A stretch of DNA of 64,000 nucleotides from Gemmatimonadaceae bacterium (GTDB lineage: Bacteria > Gemmatimonadota > Gemmatimonadetes > Gemmatimonadales > Gemmatimonadaceae), in assembly GCA_020852815.1 (NCBI GenBank), contig JADZAN010000010.1:1-64000 (forward strand). The letters are read 5' to 3'. This document shows positions 39-7,118 of the stretch, one piece after another (the first letter of the stretch is position 1; the number at the start of each line of letters is the position of its first letter). The position numbers and the translations under genes were made by a program. The notes beneath the pieces were generated by a model. The model was not told the origin of the DNA. It was given only the letters and a program-made list of their open reading frames with translations, and searched no databases.

Positions 39-149
39 GTTTGATGGGGTGCGGGCTTAAGTGTGGGTACTCCCCCGCAAACTCCCCGCCACGCACCTCG
101 CACGCGACCGCCCGAATGCCCCGCCGCCCCGCGCGGGGCAATGCCGCGC

Positions 150-198
150 GCACTCCCGTCGCCCGTCTCCCGTCCCCCCTCTCCCGTCCGCCGTTCCC
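150..198. repeat. GACGGGA-type heptamer repeats (reverse orientation)
   Basis: Imperfect copies of CCCGTCT lie just upstream of the helicase start. They are the reverse complement of the GACGGGA heptamer that forms eight tandem copies at 25748-25803. To the left they abut an imperfect GC hairpin around 125-150, the same heptamer-plus-hairpin layout seen at 25.8 kb. Confidence 0.6.
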
Positions 199-220
199 AC
201 ACACGGACTATCTTCCCCCC

Positions 221-2731
221 ATGCCGCCAGAGAATCGAGACGGGAGATTGACGCCAACCGCCGCAGCGGCGGTGCGCGCGGCGATCCGTCTCGCTTCTGG
301 CCGCGAGGTCTGTTTCGTCTGCAAGGTCGATGACGACCAGAACATCGTTGCGGCCCGTGTCGTCGCGCGGGGGGACGTCAAGTCGGTGCTCGCGCTCCCG
401 GGCTTCGCGCAACGCGGCGAACTCCTCCTGCACAACCATCCGTCGGGGAATCTCGAGCCGTCGGGCCCCGACCTCGAGATCGCGGCGCGCATGCACGACG
501 CCGGCGTCGGTTTCGCCATCACCGACAACGACGCCAGCGAGGTCTACGTCGTCGTCGAGGTCCCGCGCGAGCGCAAGCAGCACCCGGTCGATCCGCGCGC
601 GGTCGACCAGGTGCTCGGCGTCGCCGGCCCCATCGCGCGGCTGCACCAGCGATTCGAGGACCGGACGGCGCAGCGCGGCTACGCGCGCACCATCGCCCGG
701 CTCTACAACGGTGGCGGCATCGGGGTGCTCGAGGCGGGGACGGGGGTCGGCAAGTCGTTAGGCTACCTGGTCCCCGCGCTGCGCTGGGCGGCGTTGAATG
801 GTGAGCGCACGGTGGTCTCCACCAACACGATCAACCTGCAGGAGCAACTGGTCGGGAAGGACCTCCCCTTCCTGGCCCGCGCCCTCGACGACCAGCCGGT
901 GCGCTTCGCCCTCCTCAAGGGGTGGCACAACTACGTCTGCCTGTTGCGGCTGGAGCAGGCGCGCGCCGCCGGCGCGACGCTGTTCGACACCGGCTCGGTC
1001 TCCGACGTGGAATCGCTGGCCAAGTGGGCCGAGCGAACGGGCGACGGTTCGCTGAGCGACCTCGTGGCGCCGCCGCGCCCCGAGGTGTGGGACGAGGTGG
1101 CCGCGGAGCCCGACCTCTGCCTGCGGCTGCAATGCCCGCACTTCGACCGCTGCTTCCTGTTTGCCGCGCGGCGACAGGCGGCGCAGGCCGACGTCATCGT
1201 CGTCAACCATCACTTGCTCCTGGCGGATCTGGCGGTGCGCCGCGCGTCGCAGAAGTGGGACGATAGTGCCGTCCTCCCCCCGTACTCGCGCCTCGTGATC
1301 GACGAAGGGCACCACATCGAGGATGCCGCCGCGTCGCACCTGGGGGCCACCGCCACGCGACGCGCCCTGCAGCGCCTCTTTGGTCGCCTGGAGCGCCGGG
1401 GCAAGGGGCTCCTCCCGACGCTGTCGGCGCGGCTCGGCGCCCGCAGCGACCTGCTCTCGGTTGCCTCGCTCGACCTCGTGCACGCGCGGCTCTTCCCCTC
1501 GGCCGTGGCGGCGCGGGAGAAGGGCGGCGTGGTCTTCGACCTGCTCGACGGGCTGATGTTCGAGGCCAGCACGCCGGTGTTGCGGCTGACGGATGCCTTC
1601 GCCGACCACCCGATCTGGAAGGCGGGGCTGGCCGCGGCACTCGAGGACCTGCTGCGCGAGCTGGCCCTGCTGGGCGACAACCTGCGACTGGTGCGCGAGC
1701 GACTGGAGACCGACGAGAAGGCGCTGGAGGCGCACGCCGCGCTCCTCGGCGAACTGCGCGGCGTGGCGCGGCGGCTGGACAACGCGGGGAATGCGCTGCG
1801 CGAGGGGCTCGCACCCTCGGGGAAGGCCAAGACCGTCCGCTGGCTGGAAGTCCGCGGCAAGGAGCGCAACCTCGCCGTCACCTCCGTCCCGCTCGACCTC
1901 GCTCCCATCCTGCGCGAGGATCTCTTCAAGCGGCTGGAGACGGCGATCGTCACCAGCGCCACGCTCACCGCTGACGGGAAGTTCGACTTCGTGCGCGCGC
2001 GACTTGGCCTCACCGAGAGCGACGTGGAGCCGGAGACGCAGGCCTTTCCATCGCCCTTCGACTATCCGTCGCAGGCGATGCTCGCCATCCCGACCGACAT
2101 TCCGGCGCCTAACGTGGATCCGCGCGCGCACTTCGACGCCGTCGTCGACGCCATCGCGGCGGTGGCGTATGCCGCCGGCGGCGGCGTCTTTGCCCTGTTC
2201 ACCTCGCACCGCGACGTGCGCGAGGCGGCGCAGGTGCTGCGCGAGCGAGGCGTGGACCAGCGATTCCCGCTCATGGTGCACGGCGAGGACCAGCGAGCCG
2301 CACTCCTTCGCCGCTTCACCGACGCCGGCCACGCCATCCTCCTCGGCACCGCATCGTTCTGGGAAGGCGTGGACGTTCCCGGCGACCCGCTGCGCGCCCT
2401 GGTGCTGAGCAAGCTCCCCTTCAAGGTCCCGAGCGAGCCGCTGACCGCCGCGCACTGCGAAGCCATCGAGGCGCGCGGCGGCGACGCCTTCCGCGAGTAC
2501 ATGATCCCCCACGCCGCGCTGCGGCTCAAGCAGGGCTTCGGCCGGCTGATCCGCTCCGCCACCGATCAGGGGGTCGTGCTCCTCATGGACTCCCGCGCCG
2601 AATCCAAGCCTTTTGGCCGCGACATGGTCGAAGGCCTCCCGCCTGCCCGCCGCCTCATCGCCCCATGGGACGAGGTGGCCCGCGAGATCACCCGATTCTA
2701 CGCTCGCCCCGGCAAGCCAAAGACAGGATGA
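221..2731 (+). CDS. DinG/XPD-type ATP-dependent DNA helicase with an N-terminal JAB (RadC-like) domain
   Basis: An 836-residue superfamily 2 helicase predicted to unwind DNA 5'-3'. Residues about 10-125 form a RadC-like JAB domain with the metalloprotease signature H71-x-H73-P-S...S81-x-x-D84. The helicase follows: Walker A GTGVGKS at 173-179, DEGH box at 361-364, and four cysteines (YVC, then C-x4-C-x5-C) matching the DinG/XPD 4Fe-4S cluster. The C-terminal helicase half carries the ASFWEGVD and GRLIRS motifs. ATG 221 was chosen because the upstream in-frame extension is repeat DNA and low-complexity. The family role is repair or R-loop resolution; the JAB function is unknown. Fe-S, ATP and JAB residues are all present, so both halves may be active. 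Confidence 0.9.
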   Translation: MPPENRDGRLTPTAAAAVRAAIRLASGREVCFVCKVDDDQNIVAARVVARGDVKSVLALPGFAQRGELLLHNHPSGNLEPSGPDLEIAARMHDAGVGFAITDNDASEVYVVVEVPRERKQHPVDPRAVDQVLGVAGPIARLHQRFEDRTAQRGYARTIARLYNGGGIGVLEAGTGVGKSLGYLVPALRWAALNGERTVVSTNTINLQEQLVGKDLPFLARALDDQPVRFALLKGWHNYVCLLRLEQARAAGATLFDTGSVSDVESLAKWAERTGDGSLSDLVAPPRPEVWDEVAAEPDLCLRLQCPHFDRCFLFAARRQAAQADVIVVNHHLLLADLAVRRASQKWDDSAVLPPYSRLVIDEGHHIEDAAASHLGATATRRALQRLFGRLERRGKGLLPTLSARLGARSDLLSVASLDLVHARLFPSAVAAREKGGVVFDLLDGLMFEASTPVLRLTDAFADHPIWKAGLAAALEDLLRELALLGDNLRLVRERLETDEKALEAHAALLGELRGVARRLDNAGNALREGLAPSGKAKTVRWLEVRGKERNLAVTSVPLDLAPILREDLFKRLETAIVTSATLTADGKFDFVRARLGLTESDVEPETQAFPSPFDYPSQAMLAIPTDIPAPNVDPRAHFDAVVDAIAAVAYAAGGGVFALFTSHRDVREAAQVLRERGVDQRFPLMVHGEDQRAALLRRFTDAGHAILLGTASFWEGVDVPGDPLRALVLSKLPFKVPSEPLTAAHCEAIEARGGDAFREYMIPHAALRLKQGFGRLIRSATDQGVVLLMDSRAESKPFGRDMVEGLPPARRLIAPWDEVAREITRFYARPGKPKTG

Positions 2732-2753: not shown

Positions 2754-2920
2754 CCGCAGCCTTCGCTGGGGAAAGGGCTGGACCCCAGCTTTCGCTGGGG
2801 AAGGGCGCAGACCCCAGCTTTCGCTGGGGAAGGGCGCAGACCCCAGCTTTTGCTGGGGAAAGGGCTGGACCCCAGCTTTCGCTGGGGAAGGGCGTGGACC
2901 CCAGCTTTCGCTGGGGAAAG
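2754..2920. repeat. 29-bp tandem array of CCCCAGC...GCTGGGG palindromes
   Basis: Units start at 2754, 2783, 2812, 2841, 2870 and 2899, an exact 29-bp period. Each contains the palindrome CCCCAGCTTTCGCTGGGG (first copy degenerate) plus a linker that varies at a few bases. There are no unique spacers, so it is not CRISPR. It fills the space between the helicase stop and the next gene. Related single palindromes occur near 28400, 51470 and 52625. Confidence 0.85.
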
Positions 2921-3697: not shown

Positions 3698-4645
3698 ATG
3701 CTGACGCTTCACCCCCGACACAACCGCGACCTGCCGACCACGGCGGCGCGCTCGGCGCGCGTGACGCTGGTGTCGGTGCTGGTGCACGTGGTGGCGGTGC
3801 TGGCGATCTTCAAGGCGGTGCAGTCGACGGGCGCGATCCAGCGAATCTTCACGCCGAGCACGTCCTTTCGCTTCGAGCAACCCCGGGAGCGATTGACGTA
3901 TCTCTCCGTGCAGCCGACGTCGGTGCCGCCAACGGTCGTCGCGCCGACCGCCACCTCGTCACGCGCCTCAGTGGAGGGAGAGGAGCGCGCCGGGCGCACC
4001 ACGGGCGGCGCGGGGACCCCGGGGCCGGCCATTCCATCGGTCCCGCTGGTGGCGCCGAGCGCGGTTCCCAGCGGGATTCCGGCGCCGGGCGCCGGCTTCG
4101 ACGTGAACGCGGGGACGCCGGCCTCGGGGCCGCTGGCCAGCGGTCGCGGCGCCGTGAAGGGATTGCAGCCGGGCTACGTGGACCCGCGCCTCTGGCCTAA
4201 CGCGCCTGCCATCGAGTACGCCCCCAAGACCGACGAGGAGCGCCTGGACTCGGCGGTGGTCACGAGCATCATGCGCTATCGCGACTCCGTGCTCGCCAAC
4301 ACCTACACGCCGAACAAGTTCGAGCGCGGCGACTGGACGTATCGCACAAAAGACGGAAAGCGGTACGGTGTCGACCAGCAGTTCATCCGACTGGGCAAGT
4401 TCTCGATTCCCACCGCCTTGCTCGGGCTCCTCCCGCTCAACCAGATGCAAGGGAACCCGATCGAGAACGATCGGCAGGCGCGACTGGCGGCGATGCGCGC
4501 CGACATCATGCGTGGCGCAGAGGCGGCGATGAACGAGGAGGAGTTCCGCGCCGCCGTGAAGAAGATCCGCGCCCGCAAGGACAAGGAGCGCAAGGAAGCC
4601 GAGGAGCGGAAGAAGACCGAGGCCAAGCCGATCTCGGAACGGTAG
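3698..4645 (+). CDS. Hypothetical single-pass membrane-anchored protein
   Basis: A 315-residue protein I do not recognise. Residues about 20-45 form one hydrophobic segment after a short basic N-terminus, so the bulk is probably periplasmic. A Pro/Val/Thr/Gly-rich linker (about 65-165) follows, then a more ordered region (about 170-270), and a highly charged Lys/Glu/Arg-rich helical tail. The architecture of anchor, Pro-rich spacer and C-terminal module resembles TonB-like transducers, but no TonB C-terminal signature is evident. It faces the LexA-like gene tail to tail with a short 48-bp gap. Confidence 0.7.
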   Translation: MLTLHPRHNRDLPTTAARSARVTLVSVLVHVVAVLAIFKAVQSTGAIQRIFTPSTSFRFEQPRERLTYLSVQPTSVPPTVVAPTATSSRASVEGEERAGRTTGGAGTPGPAIPSVPLVAPSAVPSGIPAPGAGFDVNAGTPASGPLASGRGAVKGLQPGYVDPRLWPNAPAIEYAPKTDEERLDSAVVTSIMRYRDSVLANTYTPNKFERGDWTYRTKDGKRYGVDQQFIRLGKFSIPTALLGLLPLNQMQGNPIENDRQARLAAMRADIMRGAEAAMNEEEFRAAVKKIRARKDKERKEAEERKKTEAKPISER

Positions 4646-4693: not shown

Positions 4694-5338
4694 TTACGCC
4701 CCAGGTTCCATGGGCGCGGGTTCGTCATGCCACGTCCTGAAGATGGCCGTGACGACGCCCAGCACGGAGAAATCGTCGCTCGGCCCGAGGAAGAGTTCGC
4801 GCGCGTCGCCGTTGGTGGCCGAGAGGGAGAGGACTGCGCCCTGTCGCTGCACCACGCGCACCAGGACGTGCGGGCCGATGCGGGCGGCGACGAGGTCGCC
4901 ATCGCGGGCGCGCGTGGACGGGGCCACGAGGATCCAGTCGCCGTCGTGCACGCCGCGCGCCATCATCGCGTCGCCGCTCTGTCGCAGGAGGAAGGCGTCG
5001 GACGACGGGACAAAGCTGCGATCCATCGCCACCCACCGCTCCCTGTTGTCGTCCGTTAGGTAAGGCTCAACCGGGTTGACGCGCGCGTAGAGTGGGACGG
5101 GTTGCACTTGTCCCATGGACGACCAGCCGACGATGCGCACGCCGCGCGAGCGCGCCCCTTCGCGTTCGATGAATCCCTTCCCGGCGAGCGACTGCAGCAC
5201 CTCGGCCACCGTCTTGGTGGACTTGATGCGGAATCGCTTGCCGATCTCACGGACGCTGGGCTGGAAGGTGTTCTCCGCCAGGAAGTCCAGGAGGTAGTGA
5301 TACACGCGCCGTTCGAGCGGCGTGAGCGGGTCGTTCAT
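4694..5338 (-). CDS. LexA-like repressor lacking the self-cleavage site and catalytic dyad
   Basis: A 214-residue protein with LexA architecture: an N-terminal winged helix-turn-helix (1-70) and an S24-like C-terminal domain (75-214). In the alignable motifs, the Ser of the usual G-x-S-M is Ala124 (SGDAMM), the general-base Lys is Arg161 (VLVRVV), and the scissile Ala-Gly is replaced by Pro89-Val90 (RVNPVEP). It should bind DNA but should not self-cleave through RecA. The family function is SOS repression; non-cleavable LexA proteins, such as that of Synechocystis, regulate other genes. Another, cleavable LexA may exist outside the window. The start ATG at 5338 gives the normal LexA N-terminus. 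It lies downstream of gltX on the same strand. Confidence 0.85.
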   Translation of the reverse strand: MNDPLTPLERRVYHYLLDFLAENTFQPSVREIGKRFRIKSTKTVAEVLQSLAGKGFIEREGARSRGVRIVGWSSMGQVQPVPLYARVNPVEPYLTDDNRERWVAMDRSFVPSSDAFLLRQSGDAMMARGVHDGDWILVAPSTRARDGDLVAARIGPHVLVRVVQRQGAVLSLSATNGDARELFLGPSDDFSVLGVVTAIFRTWHDEPAPMEPGA

Positions 5339-5441
5339 GCGGAGCTGGAAGGCGCGGGGCGCGGTGTAGGGTAGACCGCGGGGGACCGACGTTGCACCAG
5401 TGCGGGCGCTGCGTCAACCGCCCTCGCTTGGGGGGCGCGAT

Positions 5442-7002: not shown

Positions 7003-7028
7003 CCGTCTCAGGTCCCGAGTATTTGCAG

Positions 7029-7118
7029 CGGAGACGGAGGGATTCGAACCCTCGATACAGGTTGACCCCGTATGCCGGTTTAGCAAACCGGTGCCTTCAG
7101 CCTCTCGGCCACATCTCC
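7029..7118 (-). tRNA. tRNA-Ser(GCT)
   Basis: A 90-nt class II tRNA. The acceptor stem pairs GGAGATG with CGTCTCC; the T-arm is GAGGG-TTCGAAT-CCCTC; the anticodon loop TTGCTAA gives anticodon GCT at 7082-7084; and there is a long variable arm, as expected for serine. It reads AGC/AGT codons. CCA is not clearly encoded. Confidence 0.95.

What the first reader, a model, noticed from the sequence alone, without database searches (positions are those of the whole stretch)
4694..5338. LexA-like repressor with cleavage site, Ser and Lys all replaced
Winged-helix domain is intact, but the scissile Ala-Gly is Pro-Val, the nucleophile is Ala124 and the base is Arg161. All three changes together argue for selection or release from SOS control, not a sequencing error. 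It would be a constitutive or differently induced repressor, as in Synechocystis LexA.
Basis: partly seen in the sequence, partly recalled or inferred. Interest (0 to 1): 0.66.

Follow-up and report, generated by a model that had tools for sequence, protein, structure and literature searches.

The report
Second LexA that cannot self-cleave
This bacterium keeps an ordinary LexA switch for its DNA-damage response and, next to gltX, a second LexA-like DNA-binding protein whose self-cutting machinery has been lost, a loss that happened repeatedly among its relatives while the DNA-binding half stayed nearly unchanged.

Summary
Window 4694-5338 (-) encodes a full-length LexA-type protein in which the scissile Ala-Gly is Pro89-Val90, the nucleophile Ala124 and the base Arg161; no Lys remains after residue 69. 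It is not this cell's SOS repressor: the genome (Gemmatimonadota) also has a canonical LexA1, with candidate boxes (TTCGG-N6-TTCGG) at lexA1, uvrA, imuA-like, gyrB, ruvB and, with one mismatch, recA. The finding is an old paralogue, "LexA2", beside gltX in several families of the class. Of 106 LexA2 proteins read, 27 keep the Ser-Lys dyad. On a gltX tree the dyad changed about 11 times in the home family plus one other (at least 5 forced by well-supported branches), while the recognition helix stayed near-invariant and dN/dS is well under 1. Cleavable LexA2 genes often carry a candidate operator GTACG-N4-CGTAC at their promoter; uncleavable ones mostly lack it, and 25 of 41 abut or overlap gltX. 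Most likely LexA2 here is a RecA-blind, constitutive DNA-binding regulator with a specificity different from LexA1. Targets are unknown and nothing was tested experimentally. Real; a new variant of a known kind.

The parts
4694..5338 (-). lexA2: second, uncleavable LexA-type regulator (214 aa)
   Evidence: Foldseek best match T. maritima LexA 3k2z, E 3.3e-17
5141..5332 (-). winged-helix DNA-binding domain, residues 3-66; recognition helix residues 41-53
   Evidence: Pfam LexA_DNA_bind; AlphaFold2 helices 7-22, 29-35, 41-53; near-invariant recognition helix in 106 orthologues
5069..5074 (-). codons of Pro89-Val90, the position of the scissile Ala-Gly
   Evidence: alignment to E. coli LexA A84-G85
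4967..4969 (-). codon of Ala124, the position of the nucleophile Ser
   Evidence: alignment to E. coli LexA S119
4856..4858 (-). codon of Arg161, the position of the general base Lys
   Evidence: alignment to E. coli LexA K156
5339..5441 (-). 103-bp gltX-lexA2 gap: a TTGAC, no LexA1 box, no GTACG-N4-CGTAC palindrome
   Evidence: best palindrome score 2.6 bits
5442..6890 (-). gltX, glutamate--tRNA ligase; upstream neighbour of lexA2 in nearly all loci read
   Evidence: TIGR00464 502.8 bits; synteny
7028..7118 (-). tRNA-Ser (GCT) upstream of gltX
   Evidence: ARAGORN
3698..4645 (+). uncharacterised ORF converging on lexA2; conserved neighbour in the home family
   Evidence: cluster 5; no Pfam match over cut-off

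Best explanation
The gene is LexA2, a paralogue found in several families of the class, lying directly after gltX. Its cleavable form was a presumably self-regulated, RecA-inducible repressor. In this lineage, as in several others independently, the scissile bond and both catalytic residues were lost, while the fold and the DNA-binding domain were kept. Working model: (1) it still folds as a LexA dimer (fold predicted, dimer inferred); (2) it still binds operators different from those of LexA1 (inferred from the recognition helix); (3) it cannot be switched off by RecA-stimulated self-cleavage (inferred from the missing residues); (4) it therefore acts as a constitutive DNA-binding regulator, or one controlled by some other means. 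SOS genes remain under LexA1.
For: Shown: the three substitutions and the absence of any Lys after residue 69. A canonical LexA1 in the same genome, with Ala-Gly, Ser and Lys in 20 of 20 LexA1 proteins read. Tandem TTCGG-N6-TTCGG boxes at 19 of 20 lexA1 promoters and within 200 bp upstream of none of the 106 lexA2 genes. LexA1-type boxes near uvrA, imuA-like, gyrB and ruvB, and near recA with one mismatch, in this genome. Recognition helix under strong constraint: Ser39, Thr40 and Val43 in 106 of 106 LexA2, and Lys or Arg at 41, where LexA1 has Ala in 20 of 20. dN/dS of the 13 within-genus f1 pairs labelled lost or partly lost is 0.09-0.38 over the whole protein. AlphaFold2 gives the LexA fold for this protein (pLDDT 85.6) and for a far more decayed orthologue (87.2). 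Among f1+f6 rows, 25 of 41 dyad-lost genes start within 50 bp of, or overlap, the gltX stop, against 0 of 27 dyad-intact genes. The candidate auto-operator (at most 1 mismatch) is found in 12 of 55 intact upstreams and 1 of 48 lost ones.
Against: No operator, target or expression is known for LexA2 of this genome. Exact GTACG-N4-CGTAC occurs once here, inside a long reading frame, and below its control (1 against 7 per strand); the 1-mismatch 16-mer is also below its control (5 against 11 per strand). So constitutive repression is inference. The link between dyad loss and gltX coupling could not be tested after allowing for kinship (5 independent pairs), and kinship was not removed from the operator counts. 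The AlphaFold2 alignments include cleavable relatives, so fold retention is partly built in. lexA2 is missing altogether in some relatives (g23, g25), so it can be dispensable.
Confidence: 0.7

Rival explanations
1. LexA2 is a paralogue in slow decay: once its inducible function became redundant with LexA1, cleavage decayed first, then the gene is lost. Any DNA binding is a vestige without a role.
For: No LexA2 was found in 7 of 59 family genomes (5 with only the LexA1-type match, 2 incomplete genomes with no match); in g23 and g25 gltX and its other neighbours are still in order. The C-terminal domain is more variable in lost than in intact rows (mean entropy 1.82-2.09 against 1.10). Losses are many and scattered.
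Against: Recognition helix near-invariant in 106 proteins. N-terminal dN/dS 0.04-0.09 within this genus, over synonymous distances of 0.29-0.64. All 30 f5 proteins lack the dyad yet keep the helix: long survival after loss.
Confidence: 0.2
2. The protein is still inducible, but by another signal (ligand or modification on the old S24 domain, or regulated proteolysis), as proposed for Synechocystis LexA (phosphorylation).
For: C-terminal domain still under purifying selection (dN/dS 0.13-0.23 in this genus). In lost f1 rows the Lys position is Arg in 38 of 41, a bias that could mean the site keeps a role. Precedent: PMC7567884 (passages read).
Against: No new pocket or added domain was looked for; Arg is also the easy conservative replacement in DNA of 62-70% GC. 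In other families the position is mostly His or Tyr.
Confidence: 0.25
3. It self-cleaves with other residues, or is cut in trans by LexA1.
For: None found; 11 Ser residues lie after residue 69.
Against: No Lys after residue 69 and no Ala-Gly or Cys-Gly there; Pro-Val at the scissile position, which also varies between the genus members (PV, PV, PT).
Confidence: 0.03

Closest known systems
LexA of Synechocystis sp. PCC 6803 (Sll1626)
   Same: LexA-type protein with the cleavage site (Ala-Gly to Gly-Gly) and Ser (to Asp) replaced; thought not to run the SOS response (PMC3091678, PMC7567884, passages read)
   Different: Here all three positions including Lys are changed, it coexists with a canonical LexA, and the loss recurs across a class
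Canonical LexA (TIGR00498; E. coli, T. maritima)
   Same: Same two domains and fold, over the equivalog cut-off
   Different: Scissile bond, nucleophile and base absent; recognition helix S-T-K-T-V differs from that of the genome's own LexA1 (S-L-A-T-V)
Two-LexA genomes, e.g. Leptospira interrogans LexA1/LexA2
   Same: Two LexA paralogues, with a separate motif described for LexA2 (PMC3789691, passages read)
   Different: Leptospira LexA2 keeps Ser and Lys with Cys-Gly and lies in a prophage-like region; this one lies beside gltX and is found in several families of a class
GIL01 gp6, truncated LexA homologue of a phage
   Same: LexA DNA-binding fold without self-cleavage, beside a normal LexA (PMC6182141, passages read)
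   Different: gp6 consists mainly of the DNA-binding domain and activates transcription; here the S24 domain is kept

Membership tests
LexA (sequence family) | Over the curated cut-off of TIGR00498 and both Pfam domains | tested here: met
   135.2 bits against 110.95; LexA_DNA_bind and Peptidase_S24 over cut-off
LexA (sequence family) | Winged helix plus S24 fold | tested here: met
   AlphaFold2 model pLDDT 85.6; Foldseek 3k2z E 3.3e-17, C-terminal domain rmsd 1.9 to 8b0v; prediction only
Self-cleaving S24 repressor | Ala-Gly (or Cys-Gly) scissile bond | tested here: not met
   Pro89-Val90; none elsewhere after residue 52
Self-cleaving S24 repressor | Catalytic Ser | tested here: not met
   Ala124
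Self-cleaving S24 repressor | General-base Lys | tested here: not met
   Arg161; no Lys in residues 70-214
Self-cleaving S24 repressor | RecA-stimulated cleavage | not testable with these tools
   needs purified protein
SOS master repressor | SOS box at its own promoter | tested here: not met
   no TTCGG box within 200 bp upstream; that box is at lexA1 (19 of 20 loci read)
SOS master repressor | Only or main LexA of the genome | tested here: not met
   canonical LexA1 at G000:C1:172665-173273
Synechocystis-type uncleavable LexA | Loss of Ala-Gly and Ser together with control of non-SOS genes | tested here: inconclusive
   residue loss met; targets unknown

The most novel reading that the evidence does not exclude
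In Gemmatimonadota a self-regulated, cleavable LexA2 has been converted many times over into a permanent DNA-binding regulator: the same protein repeatedly loses Lys (to Arg), Ser and Ala-Gly, its own operator and often its own promoter, and is absorbed into the gltX transcript, while its recognition helix stays fixed. If so, LexA2 has an important function that does not need induction, and the phylum holds replicate transitions from damage-inducible repressor to housekeeping DNA-binding protein.
Probability: 0.35. Interest if true: 0.7.

Novelty: new variant of a known kind. Interest (0 to 1): 0.5.

Why it matters
LexA is the textbook self-destructing repressor. A natural series in which self-destruction is lost again and again beside an intact SOS LexA lets one ask what a LexA does when it cannot be induced, and in what order site, base and nucleophile decay. 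It also gives a testable pair of operators for a phylum whose SOS response I could not find described in the papers searched. An annotation pipeline would name this protein an SOS repressor (it passes the equivalog cut-off), which would mislead.

Tried and rejected
Sequencing error or a one-genome oddity: rejected, because three genomes of the genus share the loss. Pseudogene: rejected as a simple reading, because the frame is open and dN/dS is well under 1. Mobile-element origin: no support. No LexA2 in viral contigs (55 pattern matches, none a relative); plasmid and phage matches to an intact LexA2 are all under 60% identity (519 plasmid and 56 phage records).

LexA2 operator search: exact dyads and EM motif search found the LexA1 box at once (a positive control), but at lexA2 mostly the promoter -35 GTTGACC. 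A CAACA...TGTTG idea at the -35 was weak and dropped. GTACG-N4-CGTAC survived: at most 1 mismatch in 13 of 103 upstreams, shuffled mean 0.33, maximum 2. It was picked by eye from the outputs, so the shuffle overstates its rarity; and the matrix was built from intact sites, so its intact/lost contrast is partly circular.

Regulon search with that palindrome: in 16 genomes exact counts were near or below control in most, but above it in G015 (13 against 2), G043 (5 against 0) and G016 (24 against 0, of which 7 are one tandem array); these were not followed up. In two g5 genomes the 2-mismatch counts equal the control (93 against 97, 82 against 84); the further sites opened lay inside long reading frames, which are cheap in GC-rich DNA. 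In this genus, 3 of 9 near-exact sites opened (L303, L305, L306) lie 50-140 bp upstream of a long frame, but none was shown to be shared by the two genomes. No regulon can be named.

Kinship-corrected test of dyad loss against gltX coupling: too few independent pairs to decide. A count of losses with weak branches collapsed gave 10 at all three thresholds, probably because the collapsing did not work; it is not used.

Rows dropped or missing: the 106 LexA2 are those whose DNA was fetched, not all hits; 13 of the 106 have no usable gltX and are absent from the gltX tree. The 20 LexA1 were hand-picked over families. The 80 GTDB loci are the best 80 of 225 for an alignment headed by an intact protein, hence biased to intact forms (51 of 80 with Ser and Lys), and they overlap the other set. 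Of 143 upstreams 103 were kept after removing near-copies.

Full report
WHAT IS THERE. The 214-aa reading frame at window 4694-5338 on the minus strand is a complete LexA-type protein: LexA DNA-binding domain, S24 domain, and 135.2 bits against the lexA equivalog cut-off of 110.95. Its best sequence relatives among solved structures are T. maritima and E. coli LexA. Beyond that, residues 70-214 hold no lysine at all and no Ala-Gly or Cys-Gly pair, so there is no obvious substitute for the Ser-Lys mechanism.

IT IS THE SECOND LexA. The same genome (G000, 5.38 Mb, 47 contigs) has exactly two S24-domain matches at E up to 1. The other, at C1:172665-173273, has the motifs VAAGAP, RGNSM and CKKF, that is, site, Ser and Lys all present. 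I call it LexA1. Record titles of the relatives of LexA2 in the GTDB-based collection name Gemmatimonadota and lower taxa of it in all 80 loci kept (best 80 of 225; that Roseisolibacter belongs there is my knowledge), which places the window in that phylum.

LexA1 IS THE SOS REPRESSOR BY ALL SIGNS. In 20 LexA1 proteins read from six families, site, Ser and Lys are present in 20 of 20. Two tandem direct repeats TTCGG-N6-TTCGG stand in front of lexA1 in 19 of 20; the twentieth, from outside the class (L149), has a TTTCGC variant. In this genome the pattern occurs 14 times against 3 for its control. The sites include lexA1 (two) and positions by uvrA, an imuA-like RecA-domain gene, gyrB, ruvB (144 bp upstream) and a radical-SAM gene that I read, from memory of the motif, as SplB-like. 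Seven of the 14 have no obvious SOS gene. recA has a one-mismatch box just upstream. None of the 106 LexA2 genes has such a box within 200 bp upstream.

LexA2 IS OLD AND SITS BESIDE gltX. In the family, 52 of 59 genomes have a LexA2 orthologue (41-100% identity); 5 have only the LexA1-type match and 2 incomplete genomes have no match. In the phylum sample of 200 genomes LexA2-type matches appear in families f1, f4, f5, f6 and f9; I saw none clear in f2, f3, f7, f8 or f10 (its list is truncated, so this rests on the best E-value per genome). gltX lies directly upstream on the same strand in nearly every fetched locus. In f1 the downstream genes converge; in the other families tadA and then pyrimidine genes commonly follow (gene names other than gltX, the DinG-like helicase and the FAA hydrolase are my reading of the sequences). 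In a protein tree the 29 LexA2 rows used and the 20 LexA1 rows form separate, fully supported groups among five outside LexA proteins. Where LexA2 is missing in f1 (g23, g25) the flanking genes remain in order, and in one f7 genome gltX is followed directly by tadA, as expected of clean gene loss, though gain elsewhere is not excluded.

THE LOSS IS RECURRENT. Of 106 LexA2 proteins, 27 keep Ser and Lys (25 of 66 in f1, 2 of 2 in f6, 0 of 5 in f4, 0 of 30 in f5, 0 of 3 in f9); 25 of the 27 also keep the scissile bond. Mapped on a tree of the neighbouring gltX, which does not use LexA2, the dyad needs 11 changes within f1 plus f6 (68 rows; bootstrap 9-11; at least 5 forced by starred branches). 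Genera g14, g18 and g22 each hold both states. Because LexA1 and outside LexA proteins have the dyad, I read the changes as losses; the tree itself cannot give direction. Partial states exist: Ser kept without Lys in 6 rows, Lys kept without Ser in 2, dyad kept without the scissile bond in 2. In lost f1 rows the Lys position is Arg in 38 of 41; elsewhere it is mostly His or Tyr.

THE REST IS KEPT. Recognition-helix positions 39, 40 and 43 (E. coli numbering) are Ser, Thr and Val in 106 of 106; position 41 is Lys (101) or Arg (5), whereas LexA1 has Ala in 20 of 20; position 44 is Ser, Thr, Ala or Val, whereas LexA1 has His in 20 of 20. So LexA2 should read a different operator from LexA1, and the same kind of operator whether cleavable or not. 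Within this genus N-terminal dN/dS is 0.04-0.09 and C-terminal 0.13-0.23. Six pairs labelled intact have whole-protein values of 0.04-0.14; the 13 f1 pairs labelled lost or partly lost have 0.09-0.38, the three f5 pairs 0.12-0.31. C-terminal domain and hinge are more variable in lost rows (mean column entropy 1.82-2.09 against 1.10, and 2.25-2.27 against 1.13). AlphaFold2 still gives the LexA fold for this protein and for a strongly decayed f5 orthologue; the alignments contained cleavable relatives, so this is supportive, not independent.

EXPRESSION SEEMS TO CHANGE WITH IT. In f1 plus f6, 25 of 41 dyad-lost genes start within 50 bp of, or overlap, the gltX stop codon; 0 of 27 dyad-intact genes do. 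In this genus two genomes overlap by 4 bases and this window has a 103-bp gap. Among 103 non-redundant upstream regions of f1-type genes, the palindrome GTACG-N4-CGTAC (at most one mismatch) occurs in 13, against a shuffled mean of 0.33 and maximum 2; 12 of the 13 are in front of intact genes (12 of 55 against 1 of 48). In genus g5 it lies between a TTGACC -35 and the -10, the classic place for auto-repression. This window has none (best score 2.6 bits). I take it as a candidate LexA2 operator, not as proven. Apart from lexA2 itself no target can be named: see Tried and rejected for the genome scans, including three genomes with more exact palindromes than their control that I did not follow up. 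Kinship was not removed from these counts; the one test that does so, on gltX coupling, had too few independent pairs.

MECHANISM, WITH STEPS MARKED. Shown: loss of site, Ser and Lys; presence of a canonical LexA1; conserved DNA-binding residues; purifying selection. Predicted: fold. Inferred: dimerisation, DNA binding, inability to self-cleave, constitutive action. I give 0.7 to an uncleavable, RecA-blind DNA-binding regulator separate from SOS, 0.25 to a different inducing signal (which overlaps with the first) and 0.2 to a decaying remnant.

COMPARISON. Uncleavable LexA is known from Synechocystis (PMC3091678 and PMC7567884, passages read), and paralogous LexA from Leptospira (PMC3789691, passages read). 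Novel LexA-like families are known in Bacteroidetes, where the cleavage residues are conserved (PMC8565304, passages read). A LexA-derived DNA-binding protein without the protease domain is known in phage GIL01 (PMC6182141, passages read). IrvR of Streptococcus mutans is presented as an exception to the RecA rule (PMC7101444, start of abstract in the listing). Two searches by phylum name gave 5 and 2 papers, none with LexA in its title (listings only), and three further searches gave none whose title or abstract start was about recurrent loss of LexA self-cleavage (listings only). That is a statement about this library only. The protein is a LexA by sequence; it fails every feature of a self-cleaving SOS repressor that could be tested here.

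Noticed in passing
G000:C1:172539-172580 (L001 1141-1182) and other loci: The canonical LexA1 of Gemmatimonadota has a candidate SOS box TTCGG-N6-TTCGG, a direct repeat of period 11 that resembles (from memory) the alpha-proteobacterial GTTC-N7-GTTC box; sites near lexA1, uvrA, imuA-like, gyrB, ruvB and, with one mismatch, recA.
   Followed up: partly
window 41-2731 (+): DinG-like helicase with an N-terminal RadC-like JAB domain (Pfam RadC 30.3 bits, Helicase_C_2 138.4 bits); conserved near lexA2 in the home family (cluster 2).
   Followed up: partly
window 2757-2918: Tandem array of a 29-base unit, 5.6 copies, inside the 5' part of the long frame that contains the FAA hydrolase gene; a 17-base core of the unit occurs once more in the genome, on C33.
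   Followed up: partly
L248-L251, L254: Genera g23 and g25 lack lexA2 but keep gltX and the genes beyond it; in one f7 genome gltX is followed directly by tadA.
   Followed up: partly
L257, L258, L263, L264 (f2 genomes G069, G074): gltX of two family f2 genomes matches this gltX in two pieces, with about residues 100-144 of the query unmatched.
   Followed up: no
genomes G015, G043, G016: Exact GTACG-N4-CGTAC palindromes exceed their reversed control (13 against 2, 5 against 0, 24 against 0 per strand); in G016 seven form one 10-base tandem array.
   Followed up: no
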